Shown here piece by piece: positions 5,964 through 20,642 of a stretch of DNA of 37,409 nucleotides. The notes under the pieces were generated by a model. The model saw only the letters and a list, made by a program, of their open reading frames with translations, had not been told where the DNA came from and searched no databases. A program made the translations under genes and the position numbers. Every line of letters starts with the position of its first letter. The stretch's first letter is position 1. The stretch is from an uncultured Lachnospiraceae bacterium (GTDB lineage: Bacteria > Bacillota > Clostridia > Lachnospirales > Lachnospiraceae): assembly GCA_947175055.1 (NCBI GenBank), contig CAMWLJ010000028.1:1-37409 (forward strand). Direction: 5' to 3'.

Positions 5964-6566
5964 ATGGAAAATACAATCTATGGTTATATACGGGTTTCCA
6001 CACGGGAGCAGAACGAGGCAAGGCAGCAGATCGCACTGCGGAATTTTCCGGTTTTGGAAGAAAATATTTTTATGGATAAGCAGAGCGGCAAGAACTTCGA
6101 TCGGGTGGCGTATCGAAAACTGATCAGGAAAATGAAGAAGAGGGATGTTCTTGTCGTACAGTCGATCGACAGGCTGGGGCGCAATTATGAGGATATCCTG
6201 GAGCAATGGCGGATCCTCACCAGAGAAAGGAAAGTCGATATCGTGGTGTTGGATATGCCGCTGTTGGACACGAGAGACAAGAGCCGGGATCTGACGGGGA
6301 CATTTATCGCAGATCTGGTACTGCAGATCCTGTCCTATGTGGCGCAGAATGAGCGGGAGAATATCAGGAAGCGCCAGGCCGAAGGCATCGCCGCGGCCAG
6401 GGAGAGAGGCGTGCATTTCGGAAATCCAGGGAAACCACTGCCGGAGACGTTTGAAGAGGTGGCAGGAAGGTGGCGAAGGAAAGAAATCGATATCTGTGAA
6501 GCATTGGAAGAACTGAAGATAGGACGTACGTATTTCTACAAATACGTAAAACTGTTGGGTCTTTAG
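5964..6566 (+). CDS. Serine recombinase, resolvase/invertase family, candidate invertase of the Pel promoter
   Basis: A 200-residue small serine recombinase. The catalytic domain has Y8-I-R10-V-S12-T with nucleophile S12 and the arginine cluster SIDRLGR (67-73). The long E helix covers about 125-150 and a C-terminal helix-turn-helix about 163-198. Size and layout match Gin/Hin/Tn3 resolvases, not the large integrases. The ATG at 5964 is preferred over the in-frame one at 5943 because AGGGAG precedes it. Only about 20 bp downstream lies the first of two inverted sites with a 2-bp centre, the geometry this enzyme class cuts. I infer it inverts the promoter of the following Pel operon. No other mobility gene is nearby, which argues against a transposon resolvase. 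Confidence 0.9.
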   Translation: MENTIYGYIRVSTREQNEARQQIALRNFPVLEENIFMDKQSGKNFDRVAYRKLIRKMKKRDVLVVQSIDRLGRNYEDILEQWRILTRERKVDIVVLDMPLLDTRDKSRDLTGTFIADLVLQILSYVAQNERENIRKRQAEGIAAARERGVHFGNPGKPLPETFEEVAGRWRRKEIDICEALEELKIGRTYFYKYVKLLGL

Positions 6567-6579
6567 GATATCCGAAAAT

Positions 6580-6608
6580 AAAAAAATCCGCCAAAGTACA
6601 CTTCGGCG
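6580..6608 (-). terminator. Intrinsic terminator formed by the left inversion site
   Basis: Read leftward, CGCCGAAG-UGUA-CUUUGGCG forms an 8-bp stem with a tetraloop, followed by GA and seven U (A-run 6580-6586). It lies about 55 bp downstream of the leftward promoter and just outside the recombinase stop codon. In the present orientation it would end that transcript before it runs antisense into the recombinase gene. Confidence 0.65.
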
Positions 6609-6609
6609 A
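6587..6609 (+). repeat. Left inverted repeat, putative recombinase site
   Basis: The 23 bp match the reverse complement of 6735-6757 at 22 positions (18 consecutive identities). Inside is a dyad, CGCCAAAGT-AC-ACTTCGGCG (6589-6608), with 9-bp arms matching at 8 positions around a 2-bp centre. The asymmetric centre AC would favour inversion between oppositely oriented copies. Confidence 0.8.
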
Positions 6610-6746
6610 ACTGATTACATATTAGAAAAACATACAAAATTATCTTTAAACTTATATCAAACTTATATACATTATATTCACTTTCTCAGACAGTGTCAAC
6701 GAAATTCTGACTTTCTTGTTTGAAACGCAACCAGTCGCCGAAGTGT
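6598..6746. other. Invertible promoter segment (phase switch), present in apparent OFF orientation
   Basis: About 147 bp lie between the two crossover centres (6598-6599 and 6745-6746). The segment is AT-rich, has no gene, and holds a perfect sigma-A promoter pointing left, away from pelD. After inversion the -35 would map to 6645-6650 and the -10 to 6668-6673, pointing right, with a leader of about 120 nt to the pelD start at 6800. The switch lies between a serine recombinase gene and the Pel operon. Seen: repeats, promoter, orientation. Inferred: inversion and ON/OFF states. Confidence 0.75.
6671..6699 (-). promoter_or_regulatory. Perfect sigma-A promoter inside the invertible segment, pointing left
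   Basis: On the minus strand: TTGACA (6694-6699), a 17-bp spacer, TATAAT (6671-6676), all 12 consensus bases. Transcription would start near 6664 and run toward the terminator at 6608-6580, giving an RNA of roughly 80 nt in this orientation. Confidence 0.85.
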
Positions 6747-6757
6747 ACTTTGACGGA
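6735..6757 (-). repeat. Right inverted repeat, putative recombinase site
   Basis: The partner of 6587-6609. Its dyad is CGCCGAAGT-GT-ACTTTGACG (6736-6755). One arm carries a mismatch that weakens a hairpin, and no U-tract follows, so an inverted promoter could read through into pelD. Confidence 0.8.
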
Positions 6758-6799
6758 TCGAAAACTGCAAAATATCGGAAAAATGAGAGGAAGATATAC

Positions 6800-8947
6800 T
6801 TGAAAACAGCATATATCGGTACAAAGGACCAATTGGCAGAAGCTTTTATCGAGCGGATGAATAAAGAAGGGAATGATGTCTATTTTCTATCCGCCGGTGA
6901 TCTTAAAAAGCGGAGCGCAGAGAGATGGAAATATAGATTTTATAAGATATCGCTGTATGGTGACAGCTATCGTAAGACACTGCAGTCGATCCGGCCTGAC
7001 TGGGTGGTGTTTGCCGGGACGCATTTTATGGACTGTATTTATCAGGAGGAAGAAGAGGAGGATGTCACCTTACTGACTCGTACCCTGCAGATCCTGTCAG
7101 ACAGGAAAGACGTGCACTTTCTGCTGCTGTCTTCTACGGAGGTCTATGGAAACACGGAGGAGAAAGCGGATGAGCAGCAGGCGGGCATGCCCGCAGGCGA
7201 AAGAGGAATGCGCTTTGTGAGGGAAGAACAGCTGCTGCAGATTTATGGAAGACAGTACGGGTTTCACTGTGCAGTGATCAGGTCCTCGCAGTTGTACGCA
7301 GACCTGGCTGTGGAAGGGGCAGAGGACTTATTGGGCAGAGGATTTACTGAAGTCGGCATCGGAAGGAAAGGAACGGCCCTGCCCAATGATATTATGCAGC
7401 CGCTGCATGTGTCGGATCTGGTGGATGCTGTCAAACGGGTGATGGATGCGGAGAAACAGGGTGTATATAATGCCGTCAGCAGTTTTGAGATCACCAGAAA
7501 ACGTTTGTACGAGCTGATCAGACAAAGACTCGATGCCCCGGATACGAAGATACAGTGGGAAGAGACAGACAGAAAGAGCATTGCGGATAACAGCCGCCTG
7601 AAAAAGGAGACCGAGTGGACAGACTTTCATAGATTGGAGGATCAGCTTGCCGAGGGCAGGATATCCTATGAGGCCAGGGCAGCAGAGCGCAAGAGGAAAA
7701 GAACAGGCAGGATACCGGACGCAGTGCAAAAGACAATAGAGAATATTGTGGTATTCGTCATTTTCTTCGCCGTCACTTATATGAGTGCGCCGCACAGTCT
7801 GTTCTCGCAGATCGAGTGGCTGACGATCTATGTGATATTGATCTCGGTATTTCTCGGCATACGGCAGAGTGCGCTGGCTGTCATCATGGCGAGTGCGGCA
7901 TATCTGTTTATCCAGGATCTGAATATTCTCAGTATGACAAATTTCTACTCTTATGCAGGCAGTGTGCTTAAGATCATGGAATTCGTATTTCTCGGGCTGA
8001 TCGTCAGTTATACGACTGACATGCTGCGTGAGGAAGTGCGGGATACGCGCAGAGAGCTGCTGATGCGGGAAGAAGAGTATGAAGAACTGAAAACGATCAA
8101 TGATGAGAATGTCATGATCAAGAATGAATATGAAGAGCGCATTCTGGATTCCAAATCCGGCTTTCCAAAGCTGTACCGCGTTGTCAGCCGGCTGATGGTC
8201 CTGCAGCCGGAGCGGATATTCATGGAGATCGTACATATCGTATCCGAAATGGTGCATACGGATACTGTGGCCGTTTACCGGGTGAAGGAAGACAGTCCGT
8301 ATCTGCGGCTGATCAACGCGCTAAACGAGGGGTCGGTGCAGGAGGGGAAATCCTGGAATCTGTCTGCCTACCCGGATATCCAGGCTTCCGTCAGCGCCGG
8401 GGAATTGTACCAGGGTGATGTGTGGAAAGGGGAGCCGGCGGTCGTTCTTCCGATCTTGTACCAGGGGAAGTGCGTTTCGGTGATCCTGATCAAGACGCTT
8501 CCTTATACAAGCCAGACTCTATATTATGTCAACCTGCTAAAAACCCTTTCGCTCCTGCTTCGCGAAGCTGTCGGACGTGCGTTGGATCATGAAGAGCTGG
8601 TAAGGGAAGATACTTATATACAGGGGACGGATGTCATGAAACCGGCTCCTTTCCGCAGGAATATCCTTCTGGCCGGGGAAAGGGCCGAAAAGAAACTGGC
8701 GGAGTATTGTGTGGTGCAGATCACAGGTGCGGATAACTTTGAAGACAGATGCAGGAAGGCGGAAGGCCGGCTGCGTACGACGGACTGTCTCGGTACCGAT
8801 GAAGACGGTAATCTCTATGCCCTGTTAAATAATACCGGTACGGGGGACGTGGAACATCTGAGGAGACGGTTTGAGGAGTGTGGCATGGCGGCAGTGGTCA
8901 CGACCACATTCGAGGATTTGGAGGAAACGGAATGGAAGGGGTTTTGA
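6800..8947 (+). CDS. pelD: PelD-like c-di-GMP receptor fused to an SDR-like domain
   Basis: A 715-residue protein taken from the TTG at 6800, which has GAGAGGAAG at the right distance; the same frame runs upstream into the invertible segment without a ribosome site. Residues 1-290 resemble an NAD(P)-dependent epimerase (AYIGTKDQL, SSTEVYG), but the YxxxK catalytic pair is missing. Four membrane helices lie at about 314-330, 340-356, 357-372 and 393-410, then a coiled coil (410-450), a GAF domain (about 460-590) and a degenerate GGDEF domain. The latter keeps R659-T-T-D662, which fits the RxxD I-site through which PelD binds c-di-GMP. PelD is the membrane receptor that activates Pel polymerisation by PelF. 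It is the first gene of the operon and, I infer, the first target of the promoter switch. Confidence 0.85.
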   Translation: MKTAYIGTKDQLAEAFIERMNKEGNDVYFLSAGDLKKRSAERWKYRFYKISLYGDSYRKTLQSIRPDWVVFAGTHFMDCIYQEEEEEDVTLLTRTLQILSDRKDVHFLLLSSTEVYGNTEEKADEQQAGMPAGERGMRFVREEQLLQIYGRQYGFHCAVIRSSQLYADLAVEGAEDLLGRGFTEVGIGRKGTALPNDIMQPLHVSDLVDAVKRVMDAEKQGVYNAVSSFEITRKRLYELIRQRLDAPDTKIQWEETDRKSIADNSRLKKETEWTDFHRLEDQLAEGRISYEARAAERKRKRTGRIPDAVQKTIENIVVFVIFFAVTYMSAPHSLFSQIEWLTIYVILISVFLGIRQSALAVIMASAAYLFIQDLNILSMTNFYSYAGSVLKIMEFVFLGLIVSYTTDMLREEVRDTRRELLMREEEYEELKTINDENVMIKNEYEERILDSKSGFPKLYRVVSRLMVLQPERIFMEIVHIVSEMVHTDTVAVYRVKEDSPYLRLINALNEGSVQEGKSWNLSAYPDIQASVSAGELYQGDVWKGEPAVVLPILYQGKCVSVILIKTLPYTSQTLYYVNLLKTLSLLLREAVGRALDHEELVREDTYIQGTDVMKPAPFRRNILLAGERAEKKLAEYCVVQITGADNFEDRCRKAEGRLRTTDCLGTDEDGNLYALLNNTGTGDVEHLRRRFEECGMAAVVTTTFEDLEETEWKGF

Positions 8948-9822
8948 CAGCACTGTTGGTCGGGAATCTCATCGCTGCGGTGGTCTTTGTCGTCGTAAAG
9001 GCGGTGCGGAAGGAAGGCGTGGGCATCGTAGTCTTCTTTCTGTTTCTTCCGCTGCTTAGTTTCGTGCTTTACTTTTTCCCGCGTATGCTAAGCCGCCTGT
9101 TTGGTGAGGAAAAGTATGACAGGGACTCGCTTGTCGGCCGTAACAGCATCAAAAAGATGGTGGAGCATCCGAACATAGAGGAAGAGCTGAATGTCGTGCC
9201 GGTGGAGGACGCCATGGCCATCAATGAGAACCGGGAGAAACGGGAACTTCTTCTGCGGCAGCTGAAGAAGGATATCAATGAAAACTATAAGGCGCTCCTG
9301 GCGGCGGAAAGGGATGAGGATTCCGAGTCCGTACATTATGTTGCCGCCACCAAGATGGAGGTCTATCGGCTTCTGCACCAGCAATGGATGGAGAACAGCC
9401 GGGCTTATGAGGAAGATAAGGACGACGATGGTAAATTCAGGGAAGCCTGCGGATCTTTGCGAAAGATGCTGGAGAGCCAGGTTCTGTCCGGCAGAGAACA
9501 GGAGATGTACAGGAAGAAATACTGCAGCCTGATGGAGGCGCAGGTTTTGATCGACGAGAGCGTGCCCACGGATTTGGATTATGAGAACTGGCTGGCCTGT
9601 CTTATCGAACTGGGACGGTTTCAGGCGGCGGAACAGCTTTGGGACCAAAGGCGCGAGAGGCTGCAAAGTGAGAACAGTTATATGAAGATGACAGAACTGT
9701 TTTACCGGAGGAAGGAAAAGGATAAATTTCGTGATTGTATCGCAGAACTGCAGAAAGACAGGATGGTAAGGCTTTCTGCGCAGGGGCTGGAGAGATTGCG
9801 GTACTGGATGCAGAGAGGATAA
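8932..9822 (+). CDS. pelE: PelE-like membrane protein
   Basis: A 296-residue protein that starts with two adjacent hydrophobic helices (about 4-24 and 29-50), followed by a soluble alpha-helical domain rich in charged residues, as expected for TPR-like PelE. PelE helps hold the PelD-PelF-PelG membrane synthase complex together. The ATG at 8932, preceded by GGAGGAAACGG, is chosen over an earlier in-frame start. It overlaps the pelD end by 16 bp, which indicates coupled translation. Assignment rests mainly on position between pelD and pelF and on this architecture, since PelE sequence is weakly conserved. Confidence 0.72.
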   Translation: MEGVLTALLVGNLIAAVVFVVVKAVRKEGVGIVVFFLFLPLLSFVLYFFPRMLSRLFGEEKYDRDSLVGRNSIKKMVEHPNIEEELNVVPVEDAMAINENREKRELLLRQLKKDINENYKALLAAERDEDSESVHYVAATKMEVYRLLHQQWMENSRAYEEDKDDDGKFREACGSLRKMLESQVLSGREQEMYRKKYCSLMEAQVLIDESVPTDLDYENWLACLIELGRFQAAEQLWDQRRERLQSENSYMKMTELFYRRKEKDKFRDCIAELQKDRMVRLSAQGLERLRYWMQRG

Positions 9823-11530: not shown

Positions 11531-12955
11531 ATGCGCGTGTGCCTGATCTGTGAAGGATGTTATCCTTATGTGCCGGGCGGTGTCTCAGGCTGGATCCAGA
11601 CTTTATGCAGTGCTTTCCAGGACGTGGAGTTCGTGGTCTGGGCACTTGCGACGACCAGAGAGGAGATGTCCGAGTATTCTTATAACATTCCCGGGAACGT
11701 GAAGGAGATCCGTACGGTCTATCTGGGAGACGAAGCATTCCGTAAGACGCATCATAAAGTCATATTGTCTGAGGAAGAGAAGGCTGTACTGAGAAATCTG
11801 GTCGTGGAATCGATGGATAAGATCGACTGGATCGCTATTTTGGAGCTGATCGGGAAATACCGGCGGTACCTGGGGGATATCCTGCTGAGTGAATCCTTTT
11901 TCGAGATCTGTCTGGAGGAGTACTTAAGACAGGGATCCAGGAAAGTGTTTAATCATTTCCTGTGGAATTTCAGAGGTATTTATTTTCCGCTGATGTATAT
12001 TCTGTCGGAGGAGATCCCCAAGGCAGACCTTTACCATGCCGTATCCACCGGCTATGCGGGCATTATGGGAAGCTGTGCCTCCTACGTGGAGAAGAAGCCT
12101 TTTCTATTGTCAGAGCATGGGATCTATACAAGAGAGCGGGAGGAAGATATCATCCGTTCCCATTGGGTGGAAGGAGATTTTAAGGAGATATGGATCAACT
12201 TTTTCAAGAAACTCTCCTACATAGCGTATCGGCAGGCGGGCCGGGTCACCAGTCTGTTTGGGGTCAGCAGGTCTTTACAGGTGGAATTGGGTTGTCCGGC
12301 CAAGAAGGCCGTGACCATCCCGAACGGTGTGGACGTCAGGGAATATGACGGATGTCGAAGTAAGAGGAAGGCGTCGTCGGAAGAGGTTACGATCGGGGCG
12401 GTCTTAAGAGTGGTGCCGATCAAAGATGTGAAGACAATGCTGCTGGCATTCGATCTTGTCAAACAGTCGGTTCCCGGAGCACGGCTGAAGATCATGGGAA
12501 ACTGCGGGGAAAATCCGTCGTATTATGAAGAGTGCCTGGAACTGATGGAAGAGCTTGGCACTGCAGATGTTGCGTTTCTGGGGCAGGTGAACGTGAAGGA
12601 ACACTTTCCGGATATCGATCTGCTGCTTCTTTCCAGCATCAGTGAAGGGCAGCCTCTGGCAATGCTGGAGGGAATGGCGGCACAGATCCCTTATGTCGCC
12701 ACGAATGTGGGAAGCTGCAGGGCGCTGCTGGAAGGGGAGGAAGGAGATTCGCTTGGCAGCGCCGGTATCGTAGTGCCTGTCATGAACAGTGAAGCGATGG
12801 CGGATGCGGTCATCCGCTGTATCAAAGATCCGCAGCTGCGCAGGCGCATGGGCAGGATCGGCAGAAAGCGGGTGGAGATGTATTACAGTAAAAGCGCGAT
12901 GCTGGAGGCATTCCGTAAGCTTTACATGGATCTTGGGGAAGAGAAGGAGGCATAG
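11531..12955 (+). CDS. pelF: PelF glycosyltransferase (GT4)
   Basis: A 474-residue GT-B enzyme that polymerises the Pel chain in the cytoplasm from a UDP-sugar; PelF uses UDP-GalNAc/GlcNAc in characterised systems. The N-terminus has the family hallmark EGCYPYVPGGVSGW, the mid region SEHGIYTRERE (from residue 194), then the nucleotide-binding half with TIPNGVD and the retaining EX7E motif E372-GQPLAML-E380. The full length matches PelF. The ATG follows GGAGGAGG and lies 3 bp after the previous stop. Confidence 0.92.
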   Translation: MRVCLICEGCYPYVPGGVSGWIQTLCSAFQDVEFVVWALATTREEMSEYSYNIPGNVKEIRTVYLGDEAFRKTHHKVILSEEEKAVLRNLVVESMDKIDWIAILELIGKYRRYLGDILLSESFFEICLEEYLRQGSRKVFNHFLWNFRGIYFPLMYILSEEIPKADLYHAVSTGYAGIMGSCASYVEKKPFLLSEHGIYTREREEDIIRSHWVEGDFKEIWINFFKKLSYIAYRQAGRVTSLFGVSRSLQVELGCPAKKAVTIPNGVDVREYDGCRSKRKASSEEVTIGAVLRVVPIKDVKTMLLAFDLVKQSVPGARLKIMGNCGENPSYYEECLELMEELGTADVAFLGQVNVKEHFPDIDLLLLSSISEGQPLAMLEGMAAQIPYVATNVGSCRALLEGEEGDSLGSAGIVVPVMNSEAMADAVIRCIKDPQLRRRMGRIGRKRVEMYYSKSAMLEAFRKLYMDLGEEKEA

Positions 12956-12961
12956 GGGACG

Positions 12962-14347
12962 ATGGCAGGAATTGGATTTGAACTACGGAAGATCTACGGG
13001 AGGAAGACACTGGTATCGAATATCTGGGGGAGTATTTATGCGACCATGACAGCCATCGGTCCGTCTGTTCTGGCAGCTGCCTTATTCCTGGCATTGAAAT
13101 TTCTGATGGACAGGGCTGGGATCCCTGAGCTTGAGAACCGCTTTTTTGTTTCTTCTTTTACCTATATTTTCCTAATCTCCATATTGATTTCTGCTTTATT
13201 CAGTACCACGCTGTCGCGGTATATTTCTGACTGCGTGTTTCAGAAAGCAGAGCAGGAGATCTCTGCCTCGGTCTTCGGGACGCTGGCATTGGGGACGGTC
13301 CTGTCAGGCATCCTGATGTTTCTGTTATGCGTGGGCATGTATGTTTACAGTGCCGTACCGCTGTACTTTCTGGTCATTTATTATTGTCTTGGGGTGCTGG
13401 TGACGAATACCTACAATATCATGACTTATGTGTCGGCGCTGAAGCAATATAAAGAAGTTACCTTCAGTTACTTTGTAGGGTTGTTGCTGGCAGCGGTCAT
13501 CTATATGGCCTGCACCGGGATCTTTCACTGGCCGGTCGTATTGGCAGCCTATCTGTCACTGATGTGCGGTTATTTTCTGGTGGTCTTCCTGCTGGTCTTC
13601 TGGTGCGTGAAGGCCTTCGGAAAGCCGGGGGCAAAGTATTTTGCCTGGCTTACCTATTTTGTCAGGTATCCGAAGCTGACCATCAGCGGTTTTAGTTATA
13701 TGCTGGGATTCTATGTGAGTACGATGATCTACTGGGCATTTTCCGATATGAGAGAACAGGTCAGTATCTTTAGTACGGCGCCGGTGTACGATCTGGCAGT
13801 ATTTCTGGCGATTGCCGTCAATATGTCTGCGCTGGTCATTTTTGTAGTGAAGGCGGAAACGGCTTTTTTCGAGAAGTATGTGGCATATCTGTCTGCGCTG
13901 AATCAGGGGTCTTATGCCAGGATCGAGAAGGAGCGGGAGAATATGAATAATACGATCCGCTATCAGCTGTTCTTTGTGTATGAGGTGCAGCTGATCATCA
14001 CGGTGGTCCTGATCTGTATGGCAAATGTGTTCTTCCCTTATCTGAATATCAGTGCACAGGTGCTGAATATGTTCATGATCCTGAGCATGGGGCTGTACAC
14101 GGTATTTAGCATGTATTTTACGGTTGTTTTCCTGTATTATTTCGAGGATCACACCGGCGCCTGCATCGGGCCTTGTGTATTTCTTCTGGTCACAGTGCTG
14201 CTGGCGGTGCTGGCATGCATATTTGGCCGGCTGTTTTATGCGCTGCCGTTATTGATCGGTGGACTGTGCGGGTGGATCTTGTCTTTCTGGAGGCTCAGAT
14301 ACCGGCTGGCACATTTGAATGCATATCTGATGTGCCGGGGAGATTGA
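12962..14347 (+). CDS. pelG: PelG polysaccharide transporter
   Basis: A 461-residue integral membrane protein with about 12 hydrophobic helices, a MATE/MOP-flippase-like relative that forms the inner-membrane conduit of Pel export and binds PelD/PelE. The N-terminus MAGIGFELRKIY is the typical PelG opening. The gene follows pelF by 6 bp with a GGAGG site. Confidence 0.92.
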   Translation: MAGIGFELRKIYGRKTLVSNIWGSIYATMTAIGPSVLAAALFLALKFLMDRAGIPELENRFFVSSFTYIFLISILISALFSTTLSRYISDCVFQKAEQEISASVFGTLALGTVLSGILMFLLCVGMYVYSAVPLYFLVIYYCLGVLVTNTYNIMTYVSALKQYKEVTFSYFVGLLLAAVIYMACTGIFHWPVVLAAYLSLMCGYFLVVFLLVFWCVKAFGKPGAKYFAWLTYFVRYPKLTISGFSYMLGFYVSTMIYWAFSDMREQVSIFSTAPVYDLAVFLAIAVNMSALVIFVVKAETAFFEKYVAYLSALNQGSYARIEKERENMNNTIRYQLFFVYEVQLIITVVLICMANVFFPYLNISAQVLNMFMILSMGLYTVFSMYFTVVFLYYFEDHTGACIGPCVFLLVTVLLAVLACIFGRLFYALPLLIGGLCGWILSFWRLRYRLAHLNAYLMCRGD

Positions 14348-16241: not shown

Positions 16242-16952
16242 ATGAAATATCTTGGGCACAAGCTGCGCCATGAGATCAAGTACTATATCAATGACAGTGT
16301 CTACCACACGCTTCGGAACAGACTTAATGCAGCAGCCGAGGCGGACCCTCATATGAGAAGCGAAGACGGCTATCTGGTCAGCAGCCTGTATCTGGATGAT
16401 ATCTATCATTCGGCGTGGGAGGAAAAGGAGGCCGGCATTCAGTTCCGTAAGAAATACAGGGTAAGGTGTTATGACAGAATGGATGACAGGATCAGTCTGG
16501 AATGTAAGCGGAAGTACGGAGAGTATATAGCGAAAGAAAGTATGCTGATCGACCGCGGACAATACGATGCCATGCTGGCAGGCGACTATGATCATTTCCT
16601 GTCCTGCCAGAACCCTTTGGGCAGAGAACTCTATGTCCTGCATCACACGCGTCTGCTGCAGCCTGTCGTGGCGGTAGAATATCTGCGGGAGGCGTATGTG
16701 ATGGAGCAGGGCAATGTGAGGATCACTTTTGATAAGGATATTTCGGTATCTGTCAGTAATCACGATCTCTTTTCCGATCACTATGAGGTCAGAAAGGTAT
16801 TGGATCCGGGAATCATGGTCCTGGAGGTGAAGTTTGACGAATACCTGCCGGATATGATGTTCCAGATCCTGAAGACAGCGATGACAGACAGATGTGCCGT
16901 TTCCAAATATGTGATGTGCAGAAAAGAAAAAAGGAGGGTTTTGTTCAGGTGA
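16242..16952 (+). CDS. VTC-domain (polyphosphate polymerase-like) protein
   Basis: A 236-residue tunnel-fold domain of the VTC family. Key residues seen: HEIKYYI near the start, RKKYRVRCYD (RxR), LECKRK (ExK), VLEVKFD and SKYV at the end, corresponding to the basic/acidic tunnel residues of yeast Vtc4. Vtc4 makes polyphosphate from ATP. Bacterial forms in exopolysaccharide operons next to CotH and DUF4956 have no settled role. The ATG at 16242 has GGGGG before it; the frame extends upstream but overlaps cotH, so the longer start is unlikely. Confidence 0.85.
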   Translation: MKYLGHKLRHEIKYYINDSVYHTLRNRLNAAAEADPHMRSEDGYLVSSLYLDDIYHSAWEEKEAGIQFRKKYRVRCYDRMDDRISLECKRKYGEYIAKESMLIDRGQYDAMLAGDYDHFLSCQNPLGRELYVLHHTRLLQPVVAVEYLREAYVMEQGNVRITFDKDISVSVSNHDLFSDHYEVRKVLDPGIMVLEVKFDEYLPDMMFQILKTAMTDRCAVSKYVMCRKEKRRVLFR

Positions 16953-17614
16953 GTACATTTTCCGATATTTTTAAAAAGGGATTCCTGGAAGAGGCCGGTA
17001 ATCTTACGATCAACGGATTTGCGATGTCGATGCTGGCGGCATTTCTGTGCGGCATGATCGTATATGCCGTTTACCGGGGATTTTACAAAGGGGTCATCTA
17101 CAATAATAACTTCAATATTCTTCTTGTGATGACAAGCTTAGTCACCTGTTTCATGGTCATTGTGATCAGCTCCAACGTGGTGCTGTCCCTTGGTATGGTA
17201 GGTGCGTTGTCCATCGTGAGATACCGCACGGCAGTGAAAGACCCGCTGGATGTGGGATTTCTGTTCTGGACCGTGGCGGTAGGCGTGACCTGCGGGGCGG
17301 GGCTTTATCTCATATCCATCCTGGGAACGGTGTTTGTTGCGGGTGTCTATATTATGCTGGTGAAGATAAGAAATAAGAAGCATCAGTACCTGCTGGTCGT
17401 GAAGTACCAGGACAGTGCGGCGGAGGAGGTCAGAAGACAGATCGAGCCGGTGAGAAAGGTATTAAAGAATAAGACGGCTTCAAAGGGAATGACGGAACTT
17501 ACCTATGAAGTAAGAATGCGGGGAGAAAACACTTCTTTTGTTACGGCGCTTTCCGCCATCAAGGGTGTGACGACCGCTGTACTGGTTGAATTTACGGGAG
17601 ACTATTTTGAATAA
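16949..17614 (+). CDS. DUF4956 membrane protein
   Basis: A 221-residue protein starting at a GTG (16949) that overlaps the VTC stop (GTGA), with AAGGAGGG upstream. Four hydrophobic segments lie in the first 150 residues, including SLGMVGALSIVRYRTAVKDP, the conserved core of DUF4956. A soluble C-terminal domain of about 70 residues follows. DUF4956 proteins regularly sit next to VTC-domain genes, so they likely form one membrane complex, for example a channel or anchor for the VTC product. The function is not established. Confidence 0.85.
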   Translation: MSTFSDIFKKGFLEEAGNLTINGFAMSMLAAFLCGMIVYAVYRGFYKGVIYNNNFNILLVMTSLVTCFMVIVISSNVVLSLGMVGALSIVRYRTAVKDPLDVGFLFWTVAVGVTCGAGLYLISILGTVFVAGVYIMLVKIRNKKHQYLLVVKYQDSAAEEVRRQIEPVRKVLKNKTASKGMTELTYEVRMRGENTSFVTALSAIKGVTTAVLVEFTGDYFE

Positions 17615-19130
17615 GAAGAAATGGGGTATCGTCCTGCTCTTCCTTGGGACCTTTGCATTGGTCTTCCTGTTATTTATGGTGATGGGGCGGGAAGAACACT
17701 GGCTTTTTGAGGAATCCGACAGAAGCCTCGACAACCCGGACAGGGGCTTCTACATTCAGATCAAAAGCAGCCGCCCTGATAAGATAGCAGATGCCGCGAA
17801 GGAAGTTCGGGTGATCCTGCTGTCTTTTGATATAGAGGAATATGTACAGGAAGAGCTTCCGGAGAAGAAAATGGAAGAACTGAAAAGCGCATTGGATACG
17901 GCCAAAAGGGAGCAGGTGGCAGTGATCTTCCGGGCGGCCTACGGCTTCCACCGGGATGTTGTAGAGCCTGACAGGATAGAAAGAATGGCAGGACATATCG
18001 CACAGATCTCGGAAGTGCTGAATGCTTATCCGGAGCAGATCCTGGTCGTGCAGGCCGGCATGTTTGGGGCTTACGGAGAATGGCATGCCAGCCGGTATCT
18101 GGAAGGCACGGAGGAAGAGCAAAGGCAGAACAGGCTGTATCTTCTGAGACAGTGGGACACGTATCTGGATCCGGGGATCAAGGTGGCAGTGCGCCGTCCC
18201 AGATTTGTGCGGGAAGCCATGGCGGAGCAGATCCTGACAGGCAGGCTGGGGATCCATAACGATGCGCTCCTTTCCAACAGCAGTGATATGGGAACTTATG
18301 ACGATCCGGGCATGGGGCGGGCAGAGGAACTGCAGTGGGTGCAGACATATCTGAAGGGCCAGGTGAACGGCGGAGAAATGCCGATACCAGGAAAGCTGAA
18401 CGATCCGCAGAACGCAGATCATGAATTCCGAAAACTGTATATAAGCTATCTGAACCTGAGATATAATGAGGAGATCATCTCCCGGTGGGCCGGGATGACG
18501 ATGGAAGGACAGGATGTGGACGCCAGGCATTATCTGGGCAGCCGTCTCGGATATCGTCTCTTTGTTTCGGAACTGGATGTGAGAAGCGTCTGTTTTGCGG
18601 GGGAATTGTCCGGCAGAGGGATACGGATGCAGATCCGTCTGTGCAACACCGGTTATGCACCGCTTCCGGATAGATACAGGGTTTTCCTAACGGTGGAAGA
18701 CAAGACGAAACAGTTATGCGATGAAGTGGAGATGCCGGAACTGTATGAGATCGCCGGCGGCCAGAGTGTCAGGAAGGAAGTGTATGTCAGAATACCGGAT
18801 GAATTCCTGGCGGGGAAAGAAAAGATCGTTGTCGGACTGAAGATAGCGCCGGACAGGACTATGACGGACAAAAGAGACTGTGTGGAACTGGCAAACGATG
18901 GGTTTGTCTACGATAACGGAAACAACAAATTGTTGTATATGCAAAGGGAAGGTAAGTTATGCTTCAAGACGGTGAGACAGGAAAACGCCTCCGAGGTTGT
19001 CGTCGGAGACGTTTTCTTTAACTCTCTCATAGGAAAGAGCCACTATCTTCATATTGAAAGTATGGTCTGCGGATCAAAGCAGCTTCTCGCCGTTCTCCTG
19101 CATCTTCATGGCGCGGACTTTACAGGATAA
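17607..19130 (+). CDS. DUF4874/DUF4832 secreted glycosidase-like protein
   Basis: A 507-residue protein with an N-terminal membrane anchor or signal (about 5-26). Next comes DUF4874 with the hallmark [10 protein letters not shown] and a TIM-barrel-like region ([16 protein letters not shown], with candidate acids), and then a beta-rich DUF4832 domain. The fold suggests a polysaccharide-acting enzyme outside the cell. It could fill the hydrolase role that PelA has in Proteobacteria; that is inference. I chose the TTG at 17607, which has ACGGGAG upstream and overlaps the DUF4956 stop by 8 bp. The last 60 residues look unlike the family, cover a terminator hairpin and run over the argG 3' end, so the reading frame may be artificially extended. 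Confidence 0.75.
18981..19016. terminator. Hairpin terminator between the Pel operon and argG
   Basis: GAAAACGCCTCCGA pairs with TCGGAGACGTTTTC (13 of 14 pairs) around an 8-nt loop. The A/T-rich outer stem lets it act in both directions. It lies inside the 3' end of the DUF4832 reading frame. Confidence 0.6.
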
Positions 19131-20297: not shown

Positions 20298-20370
20298 GGT
20301 GTAATCTCCTTTGTTTTTCAATTTTGTTTGCCCGGCCGGCGTGCCGCATGGGCATTCATGCTATGATAGT

Positions 20371-20505
20371 CGATCACTCCGAGCCCTTGGCTCTCGCGTG
20401 ATCGCCGCCAGTATTCGTACTCCGGCCTGTCGGCCTCCATACTCATACCGGCTAGCCCGTCCGATGTCTGCATGGCGGTGCGTGCAAGCACGCTCATCCA
20501 TACAG
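20371..20505 (-). ncRNA. Structured 5' leader of argG
   Basis: The GC-rich stretch between the ARG box and argG folds into three hairpins in series: CGATCAC/GTGATCG around GAGCC/GGCTC (20371-20404), GCCAGTAT/ATACCGGC around GGCC-TGTC-GGCC (20407-20452), and CTGCATG/CATACAG around GCGTGC-AA-GCACGC (20468-20505). I do not recognise it as a known riboswitch or T-box. Short frames over it on both strands lack ribosome sites. It may be a cis-acting leader, a small RNA, or a palindromic repeat element. Confidence 0.45.
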
Positions 20506-20642
20506 CCGCCGTCCGGGACTCTCATAGTAATATACAGCATGGCAGTGTAGAATGCAAGTGTGATTTTATGCATTTTTAAGACAAATATTTCTTATTTTTT
20601 ATGCAAAAAGTAGAATGAAAACTGTATAATATGCATAGTTAA

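What the first reader, a model, noticed from the sequence alone, without database searches (positions are those of the whole stretch)
6587..6757. Invertible promoter (phase switch) in front of a Pel polysaccharide operon
A serine recombinase gene is followed by two inverted 23-bp repeats (22 of 23 identical) that bracket a perfect sigma-A promoter, and then by the nine-gene Pel-type operon. The promoter points away from the operon, so the assembled state is OFF; inversion would place TTGACA at 6645 and TATAAT at 6668, facing pelD. Invertible promoters of surface structures are known (for example Bacteroides capsules and C. difficile switches). I know of no described serine-recombinase switch of a Gram-positive Pel operon.
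Basis: partly seen in the sequence, partly recalled or inferred. Interest (0 to 1): 0.95.

Follow-up and report, generated by a model that had tools for sequence, protein, structure and literature searches.

The report
Flip switch for a biofilm operon
A gut bacterium appears to turn its Pel biofilm-sugar genes on and off by flipping a tiny piece of DNA that carries their promoter, using an enzyme encoded right beside it, and related species hold matching pieces in either orientation.

Summary
A serine recombinase gene (5964-6566) ends 19 nt before a 24-nt inverted repeat (23 of 24) bracketing a 12/12 consensus promoter that points away from a nine-gene clostridial Pel operon. Each repeat is a near-palindrome, RAAGT-AC/GT-ACTTY, with non-palindromic centres in opposite orientation, as a serine invertase needs. 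Computed inversion puts TTGACA at 6645, facing pelD. The left repeat plus a T-run resembles a terminator for the outward (OFF) transcript.

In related loci flanks are collinear but the segment is reversed: L122/L124 86% identity inverted (z 20.9; direct 1.5); second Pel operon type L047/L048 74% (z 11.9; direct 0.5). A site pair follows the recombinase in 35 of 73 family loci, 0 of 2698 control windows.

Limits: no reads, same-species pair or expression data. All three window-type pel loci are OFF; 35 of 41 pelD upstream regions examined lack such sites. Promoter inversion is a known mechanism; I found no phase-variable Pel operon in the listings searched. Relatives also sit before a cellulose-like operon and an adhesin-like gene with tandem c-di-GMP riboswitches.

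The parts
5964..6566 (+). serine recombinase (putative DNA invertase), 200 aa; S12 aligns with S9 of Sin
   Evidence: Pfam Resolvase 105 bits; phmmer to Sin 2r0q E 1.7e-25, to a chain named DNA-invertase, 4m6f, E 7.9e-16; motifs YGYIRVS, DRLGRNY, NERENIRKRQ present
6586..6609 (+). left recombination site (20-mer 6589-6608, central dinucleotide AC at 6598-6599)
   Evidence: inverted repeat; family core AAAGT-NN-ACTTT
6599..6745 (.). segment predicted to invert (between the site centres)
   Evidence: computed inversion; reversed homologues in related loci
6671..6699 (-). promoter TTGACA-17-TATAAT pointing away from pelD (OFF); maps to 6645-6673 plus strand after inversion
   Evidence: TTGACA invariant and TATA(A/C)T in 11 of 11 aligned cassettes
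6575..6612 (-). intrinsic-terminator-like site for the OFF transcript: left-site hairpin plus T-run
   Evidence: 12 pairs plus T-run; fold -15.2 kcal/mol, z -4.5
6735..6758 (-). right recombination site (20-mer 6736-6755, central dinucleotide GT at 6745-6746); no T-run after it on the plus strand
6800..8947 (+). pelD-like: epimerase-like domain, membrane region, weak GAF, C-terminal RxxD; TTG start after GAGAGGAAG
8935..9822 (+). pelE by position (no family match above cut-off); start uncertain
   Evidence: layout in PMC7112168
9827..11527 (+). pelADA-like (DUF2194)
11531..12955 (+). pelF, glycosyltransferase
   Evidence: NCBIfam PelF 374 bits, cut-off 100; Pfam DUF3492
12962..14347 (+). pelG, exporter
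   Evidence: Pfam PelG 320 bits
14423..16165 (+). cotH-type kinase
   Evidence: Pfam CotH 185 bits
16074..16952 (+). VTC-domain (polyphosphate polymerase-like); start uncertain
16892..17614 (+). DUF4956 protein; start uncertain
17586..19130 (+). DUF4832/DUF4874 protein; start uncertain

Best explanation
A cis-encoded serine invertase reversibly flips a 147-bp segment that carries the promoter of the pel operon. (1) A recombinase dimer binds each dyad site (inferred from site symmetry and family-wide co-variation). (2) It cuts at the two central bases, AC on the left and GT on the right, and exchanges strands; because the centres are in opposite orientation the outcome is inversion (inferred). 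(3) OFF, as assembled: the promoter fires outward and its transcript of about 90 nt should stop at the left-site hairpin plus T-run (predicted). (4) ON: the promoter sits at 6645-6673, reads through the right site, which has no T-run, and gives a leader of about 120 nt to pelD (predicted). (5) Cells therefore split into Pel-producing and non-producing states (inferred), with c-di-GMP acting on PelD as a second layer (shown for B. cereus in PMC7112168; here only an RxxD motif was seen). Shown here: anatomy, and homologous segments in both orientations in related loci. Not shown: catalysis, live switching, transcription, Pel polymer.
For: Anatomy. Reversed segment between collinear flanks: L122 vs L124 (recombinases 80% and 78% identical to the window's): plus/plus alignments of 74% (which also runs across the segment) and 93%, and a plus/minus alignment of the segment, 83% over 198 bp, E 3e-46; sites excluded, 86% inverted, z 20.9, against z 1.5 direct. 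Second Pel operon type: L047 vs L048 74% inverted, z 11.9 against 0.5 direct; L048 vs L098 72%, z 11.9 against 1.0; L045 vs L048 72%, z 6.6 against -0.1; their left flanks are plus/plus at about 80%. Family: a site pair downstream of the recombinase in 35 of 73 loci with at least 500 nt there (from the best 80 of 199 relatives), 0 of 2698 control windows. Centres inverted in 33 of 38 pairs found without requiring it, 3 palindromic, 2 mismatched, 0 direct. Outer half-site bases co-vary with the recombinase C-terminal part (Mantel r 0.65) more than with the N-terminal part (r 0.35), each with 0 of 5000 permutations reaching it. The T-run is kept in L118, L119 and, shorter, L121. Second-type Pel loci: G094 and G100, which have a recombinase of 91% and 86%, have two clear sites; G099 (87%) one clear and one weak site; G022 and G030, whose best recombinase is 59%, one and none.
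Against: No reads or same-species pairs were available, so inversion is inferred from differences between species. All three window-type pel loci (window, L118, L119) are OFF. Two of nine close recombinases (L123, L125) have no detectable site pair. Of 41 pelD upstream regions examined (40 fetched plus the window, some cut short by contig ends), 6 carry a site with at least 9 of 10 core bases and 3 a linked recombinase. The left site of L047 has 8 of 10 core bases, was missed by the scan and was picked by eye. 38 of 73 family loci show no pair under the strict rule. No terminator-like site was found on the plus strand between the recombinase gene and pelD, so OFF may leak. The nearest solved relative by sequence is the resolvase Sin.
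Confidence: 0.88

Rival explanations
1. A frozen switch: once invertible, now locked OFF at the window-type locus, pel being expressed by read-through or silent.
For: 3 of 3 window-type loci are OFF. L119's two sites match each other at only 13 of 20 positions. At the second-type locus G022 has one detectable site and no close recombinase, which looks frozen ON.
Against: In the window the two sites, their inverted centres and the recombinase motifs are in place, and no promoter-like match lies in the 41 nt between right arm and pelD.
Confidence: 0.08
2. The promoter makes a small RNA ending at the left hairpin; the second repeat is incidental.
For: Promoter plus terminator-like site define a transcript of about 90 nt.
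Against: No Rfam match at this place at gathering thresholds. The same cassette faces the target side in L124, L047, L045 and L098.
Confidence: 0.03
3. The recombinase is a resolvase or mobile-element recombinase and the repeats are its resolution or end sites.
For: Best solved match is Sin/Tn552 resolvase.
Against: Site centres are inverted; 0 of 38 family pairs are direct. No transposase among the 20 window proteins scanned. Between species the segment is collinear or reversed, not absent, in most compared loci, G030 being the exception.
Confidence: 0.03

Closest known systems
Mpi serine invertase and the capsule promoters of Bacteroides fragilis (recalled; cited in a reference list seen)
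   Same: serine recombinase, inverted repeats around a promoter in front of a polysaccharide operon
   Different: the window protein reaches 46.6 bits on NCBIfam's Mpi model, cut-off 272; here the invertase is encoded next to the switch, in Clostridia, and the operon is Pel
Hin/Gin invertases (recalled)
   Same: serine chemistry, dyad site with a two-base centre, gene beside or within the switch region
   Different: segment of 147 bp with the invertase gene outside it; a Fis enhancer was not looked for
cwpV switch of Clostridioides difficile
   Same: clostridial surface locus; intrinsic terminator in the OFF transcript
   Different: tyrosine recombinase RecV; the promoter lies outside the inverted region (PMC2784873, passages)
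Gram-positive Pel operons (pelDEADAFG)
   Same: gene content and order with cotH, polyphosphate polymerase, DUF4956, DUF4832 (PMC7112168, passages)
   Different: 'recombinase' and 'phase vari' occur 0 times in that paper's main text
gut invertons catalogued by read mapping (Jiang 2019, not held, recalled; PMC11892184 and PMC5903667, passages)
   Same: short intergenic invertible elements near surface genes, also in Clostridia
   Different: no Pel target in the passages I saw; 'serine' occurs 0 times in PMC11892184

Membership tests
small serine recombinase | Resolvase catalytic domain with nucleophilic serine and arginines | tested here: met
   PF00239 over cut-off; aligned with Sin; motifs; which residues are catalytic is recalled
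DNA invertase with dyad sites | two inverted dyad sites with non-palindromic centres in opposite orientation | tested here: met
   AC left, GT right
DNA invertase with dyad sites | catalysed inversion | not testable with these tools
   needs an assay
invertible promoter (inverton) | promoter between inverted repeats, facing the target in one orientation | tested here: met
invertible promoter (inverton) | both orientations occur in one population | tested here: inconclusive
   both orientations found between species in homologous loci; no within-population data
Mpi family | NCBIfam NF009949 cut-off 272 bits | tested here: not met
   46.6 bits
Hin/Gin family | Fis-bound recombinational enhancer | not tested
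   not looked for
Gram-positive Pel operon | pelF and pelG with pelD, pelE, pelADA upstream | tested here: met
   PelF and PelG by models; pelADA-like by DUF2194; pelD by architecture; pelE by position only
c-di-GMP receptor PelD | c-di-GMP binding | tested here: inconclusive
   RxxD invariant in 7 of 7; no solved PelD matched by sequence; binding not tested

The most novel reading that the evidence does not exclude
A clade of portable serine-invertase cassettes in gut Lachnospiraceae puts c-di-GMP-controlled surface programmes under a heritable ON/OFF switch: two different Pel operons, a GT2/PilZ cellulose-like operon, and an adhesin-like protein with accessory Sec genes behind tandem c-di-GMP-I riboswitches. 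In genomes such as G094 and G099 one invertase would serve two Pel operons, one beside it and one elsewhere, which are found in opposite states (first OFF, second ON), so a clone could take up to four matrix states.
Probability: 0.4. Interest if true: 0.75.

Novelty: new member of a known kind. Interest (0 to 1): 0.64.

Why it matters
Pel is treated as a matrix polymer set by c-di-GMP and transcription factors. A DNA-inversion switch would make it a bet-hedging trait in gut commensals, heritable within a lineage and readable from ordinary sequencing reads. It also gives a recognisable signature (core AAAGT-NN-ACTTT pair, the first site starting 13-117 nt after the end of the recombinase match) with which similar switches can be sought in Clostridia genomes without read data.

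Tried and rejected
Small RNA reading: no Rfam match at the site and cassettes facing the target side elsewhere; set aside. Resolvase or transposon-end reading: site centres inverted, none direct in 38 pairs; set aside. Switch as a general feature of Lachnospiraceae pel operons: rejected. A pelD match was found in 73 of 397 family genomes at E <= 1e-30 and in 6 of 77 genus genomes; upstream regions were fetched for 40 of these loci, not all. Of 41 with the window, 6 have a site with at least 9 of 10 core bases, all in the window's genus; two more (L061, L068) have 8-of-10 hits only. L057, L058, L077 and L080 are under 1.4 kb. Regulon in the window's own genome: the only pattern hits were the two switch sites (reversed-pattern control 1 hit), in an 81% complete assembly. 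c-di-GMP riboswitch as a standard part: of 23 sources searched only L122 and L124 have one, so the c-di-GMP theme rests on a different link at each kind of target.

Assembly breaks at switches: contigs end within 250 nt downstream of the recombinase match in 6 of 80 loci and upstream in 1 of 80. Suggestive only. L050 has a perfect 26-nt repeat pair before pelD but no recombinase in the stretch and no promoter match of 10 or more of 12 between the repeats; left open. L126 (67% identity) has a site pair but only a 9-of-12 promoter and was left out of the ON/OFF count. PelD could not be confirmed through solved structures by sequence; no structure prediction was run.

Literature searches: no phase-variable Pel operon or serine-recombinase switch of a Pel operon in the titles and abstract starts listed. 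Listings were capped (for example 20 of 554, 12 of 74, 12 of 72); two searches returned nothing. The library lacks most subscription journals; Jiang 2019 was not held.

Full report
What is there. A 24-nt inverted repeat (6586-6609 and 6735-6758, 23 of 24) is the only one of score 15 or more with spacing 60-400 in the window, and in 2000 dinucleotide shuffles of 6567-6800 the best score was 13 against 21 observed. Between the arms lies a 12/12 promoter on the minus strand. Upstream, ending at 6566, is a small serine recombinase; downstream, from 6800, a nine-gene operon with PelF and PelG over curated cut-offs and the accessory genes described for clostridial Pel clusters in PMC7112168 (passages only).

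Each arm is itself a dyad with a two-base centre, AC on the left and GT on the right, the arrangement that lets a serine recombinase invert rather than delete (recalled mechanism). And on the minus strand the left arm forms a 12-pair hairpin followed by a T-run, so the outward transcript should stop after about 90 nt. Computed inversion gives the promoter at 6645 facing pelD with a leader of about 120 nt.

Comparative test. Nine close recombinases were found: the window's and eight others of 77-91% identity (L118-L125). Seven of the nine have a site pair with a promoter of at least 11 of 12 matches between; L123 and L125 do not. Orientation relative to the side away from the recombinase: window, L118, L119, L120, L121 and L122 OFF, L124 ON. 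L122 and L124 are the key pair: plus/plus alignments of 74% (one that also runs across the segment) and 93%, and the segment plus/minus at 83% over 198 bp, E 3e-46; sites excluded, 86% inverted with z 20.9, direct z 1.5. Both have tandem c-di-GMP-I riboswitches after the switch. From contig length and position I take L118, L119, L120 and L121 to be G094:C73, G099:C9, G100:C12 and G206:C11.

A second Pel operon type in the same genus (PelD 23% identical) has the same cassette without an adjacent recombinase in the stretch fetched: G100 (L048) OFF, with a degenerate second cassette upstream also OFF; G099 (L047) ON, its left site weak and picked by eye; G022 (L045) ON with one detectable site; G094 (L098) ON as judged from the left flank only, the contig ending 29 nt past the right arm and no pelD on it; G030 (L046) without sites. 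L047 vs L048 shows collinear flanks on both sides and a reversed segment; L048 vs L098 a collinear left flank and a reversed segment. The window's segment matches L047 inverted (z 7.8) and L048 directly (z 5.2); against L122 and L124 it shows little similarity either way. In total, of 11 cassettes with a promoter of at least 11 of 12 matches, 7 are OFF and 4 ON, not counting the degenerate L048 copy. At this locus G094 and G100 (recombinase 91% and 86%) have two clear sites, G099 (87%) one clear and one weak, G022 and G030 (best recombinase 59%) one and none.

Family test. Of 199 relatives the best 80 were kept; 73 have at least 500 nt downstream, and 35 of these carry a core site pair within 800 nt; 0 of 2698 control windows from the same loci do. 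In a second scan that did not require it, 33 of 38 pairs have inverted centres, 3 palindromic, 2 mismatched, none direct. In 35 recombinases (38 before removal of near-identical ones) outer half-site similarity follows C-terminal similarity (r 0.65) more than N-terminal (r 0.35); 0 of 5000 permutations reached either. The pairs were chosen on the core and on a minimum arm match, so the outer bases are not wholly free of selection. 38 of 73 show no such pair under this rule; their sites may differ or be absent.

Targets. Close clade: pel (window, L118, L119); VTC-DUF4956-CotH-GT2/PilZ-MBOAT, a cellulose-like operon (L121; its first ORF as called starts inside the switch, so its true start is probably later); an alpha-L-fucosidase-family protein after a 134-aa ORF and a further promoter-like site (L120, target uncertain); a pentapeptide-repeat protein running off the contig (L122); a 2121-aa protein with SecY-family and Asp1 genes (L124), whose adhesin-type NCBIfam matches are below cut-off. 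Wider family: one downstream protein, usually the first, was scanned for 20 loci; 10 look glycan-, envelope- or transport-related (one below cut-off), 8 do not, 2 had no match.

What is not shown. No reads, no same-species pair and no expression data. All three window-type loci are OFF. Of 41 pelD upstream regions examined 6 carry this kind of site, all in the window's genus. G206, which has a 77% recombinase and the L121 switch, has a pel operon without sites (L049). Transcription from the recombinase gene could leak into pelD.

Known or new. Promoter inversion by serine recombinases is known (Hin, Mpi; recalled), and Clostridia carry invertons (PMC5903667, passages). The protein is not an Mpi by the curated cut-off. 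I saw no phase-variable Pel operon in the capped listings. I file it as a new member of a known kind: a new target, a distinct invertase clade with its own site, and a possible shared invertase for two Pel operons.

Noticed in passing
L052 (G405:C4:28602-30711), L207, L208: Two divergent pel operons (pelD, E, F, G found on both sides, pelADA on one) with a tyrosine recombinase gene between them, the whole flanked by 27-nt inverted repeats (L052 340-366 and 1730-1756), and a 10-of-12 promoter-like site facing one pelD. It looks like an independent A/B selector between two Pel operons.
   Followed up: partly
L122 11440-11762, L124 11313-11635: Tandem c-di-GMP-I riboswitches between the invertible promoter and a large downstream gene: phase switch and second-messenger control in series.
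   Followed up: partly
G000:C49, L105 5507-5703: The window's genome has a second recombinase of this family (60%) with a site pair before a glycosyltransferase / galactofuranosyltransferase-like / UDP-galactopyranose mutase operon.
   Followed up: partly
L140, L141, L143: A relative of the recombinase with identical sites in three records of different genera; the downstream gene scanned in L140 is of the rRNA adenine dimethylase family. Promoter-like site in the same orientation in all three.
   Followed up: no
L050 3167-3360: Perfect 26-nt inverted repeats of palindromic arms, 142 nt apart, about 680 nt before another pelD; no recombinase seen in the stretch.
   Followed up: no
L048, upstream of pelD in G100: Two tandem copies of the promoter cassette, the outer with a degenerate site, both OFF.
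   Followed up: no
window 20361-20527: Clostridiales-1 RNA (Rfam RF01699, 107 bits) on the minus strand, upstream of the argininosuccinate synthase gene.
   Followed up: no
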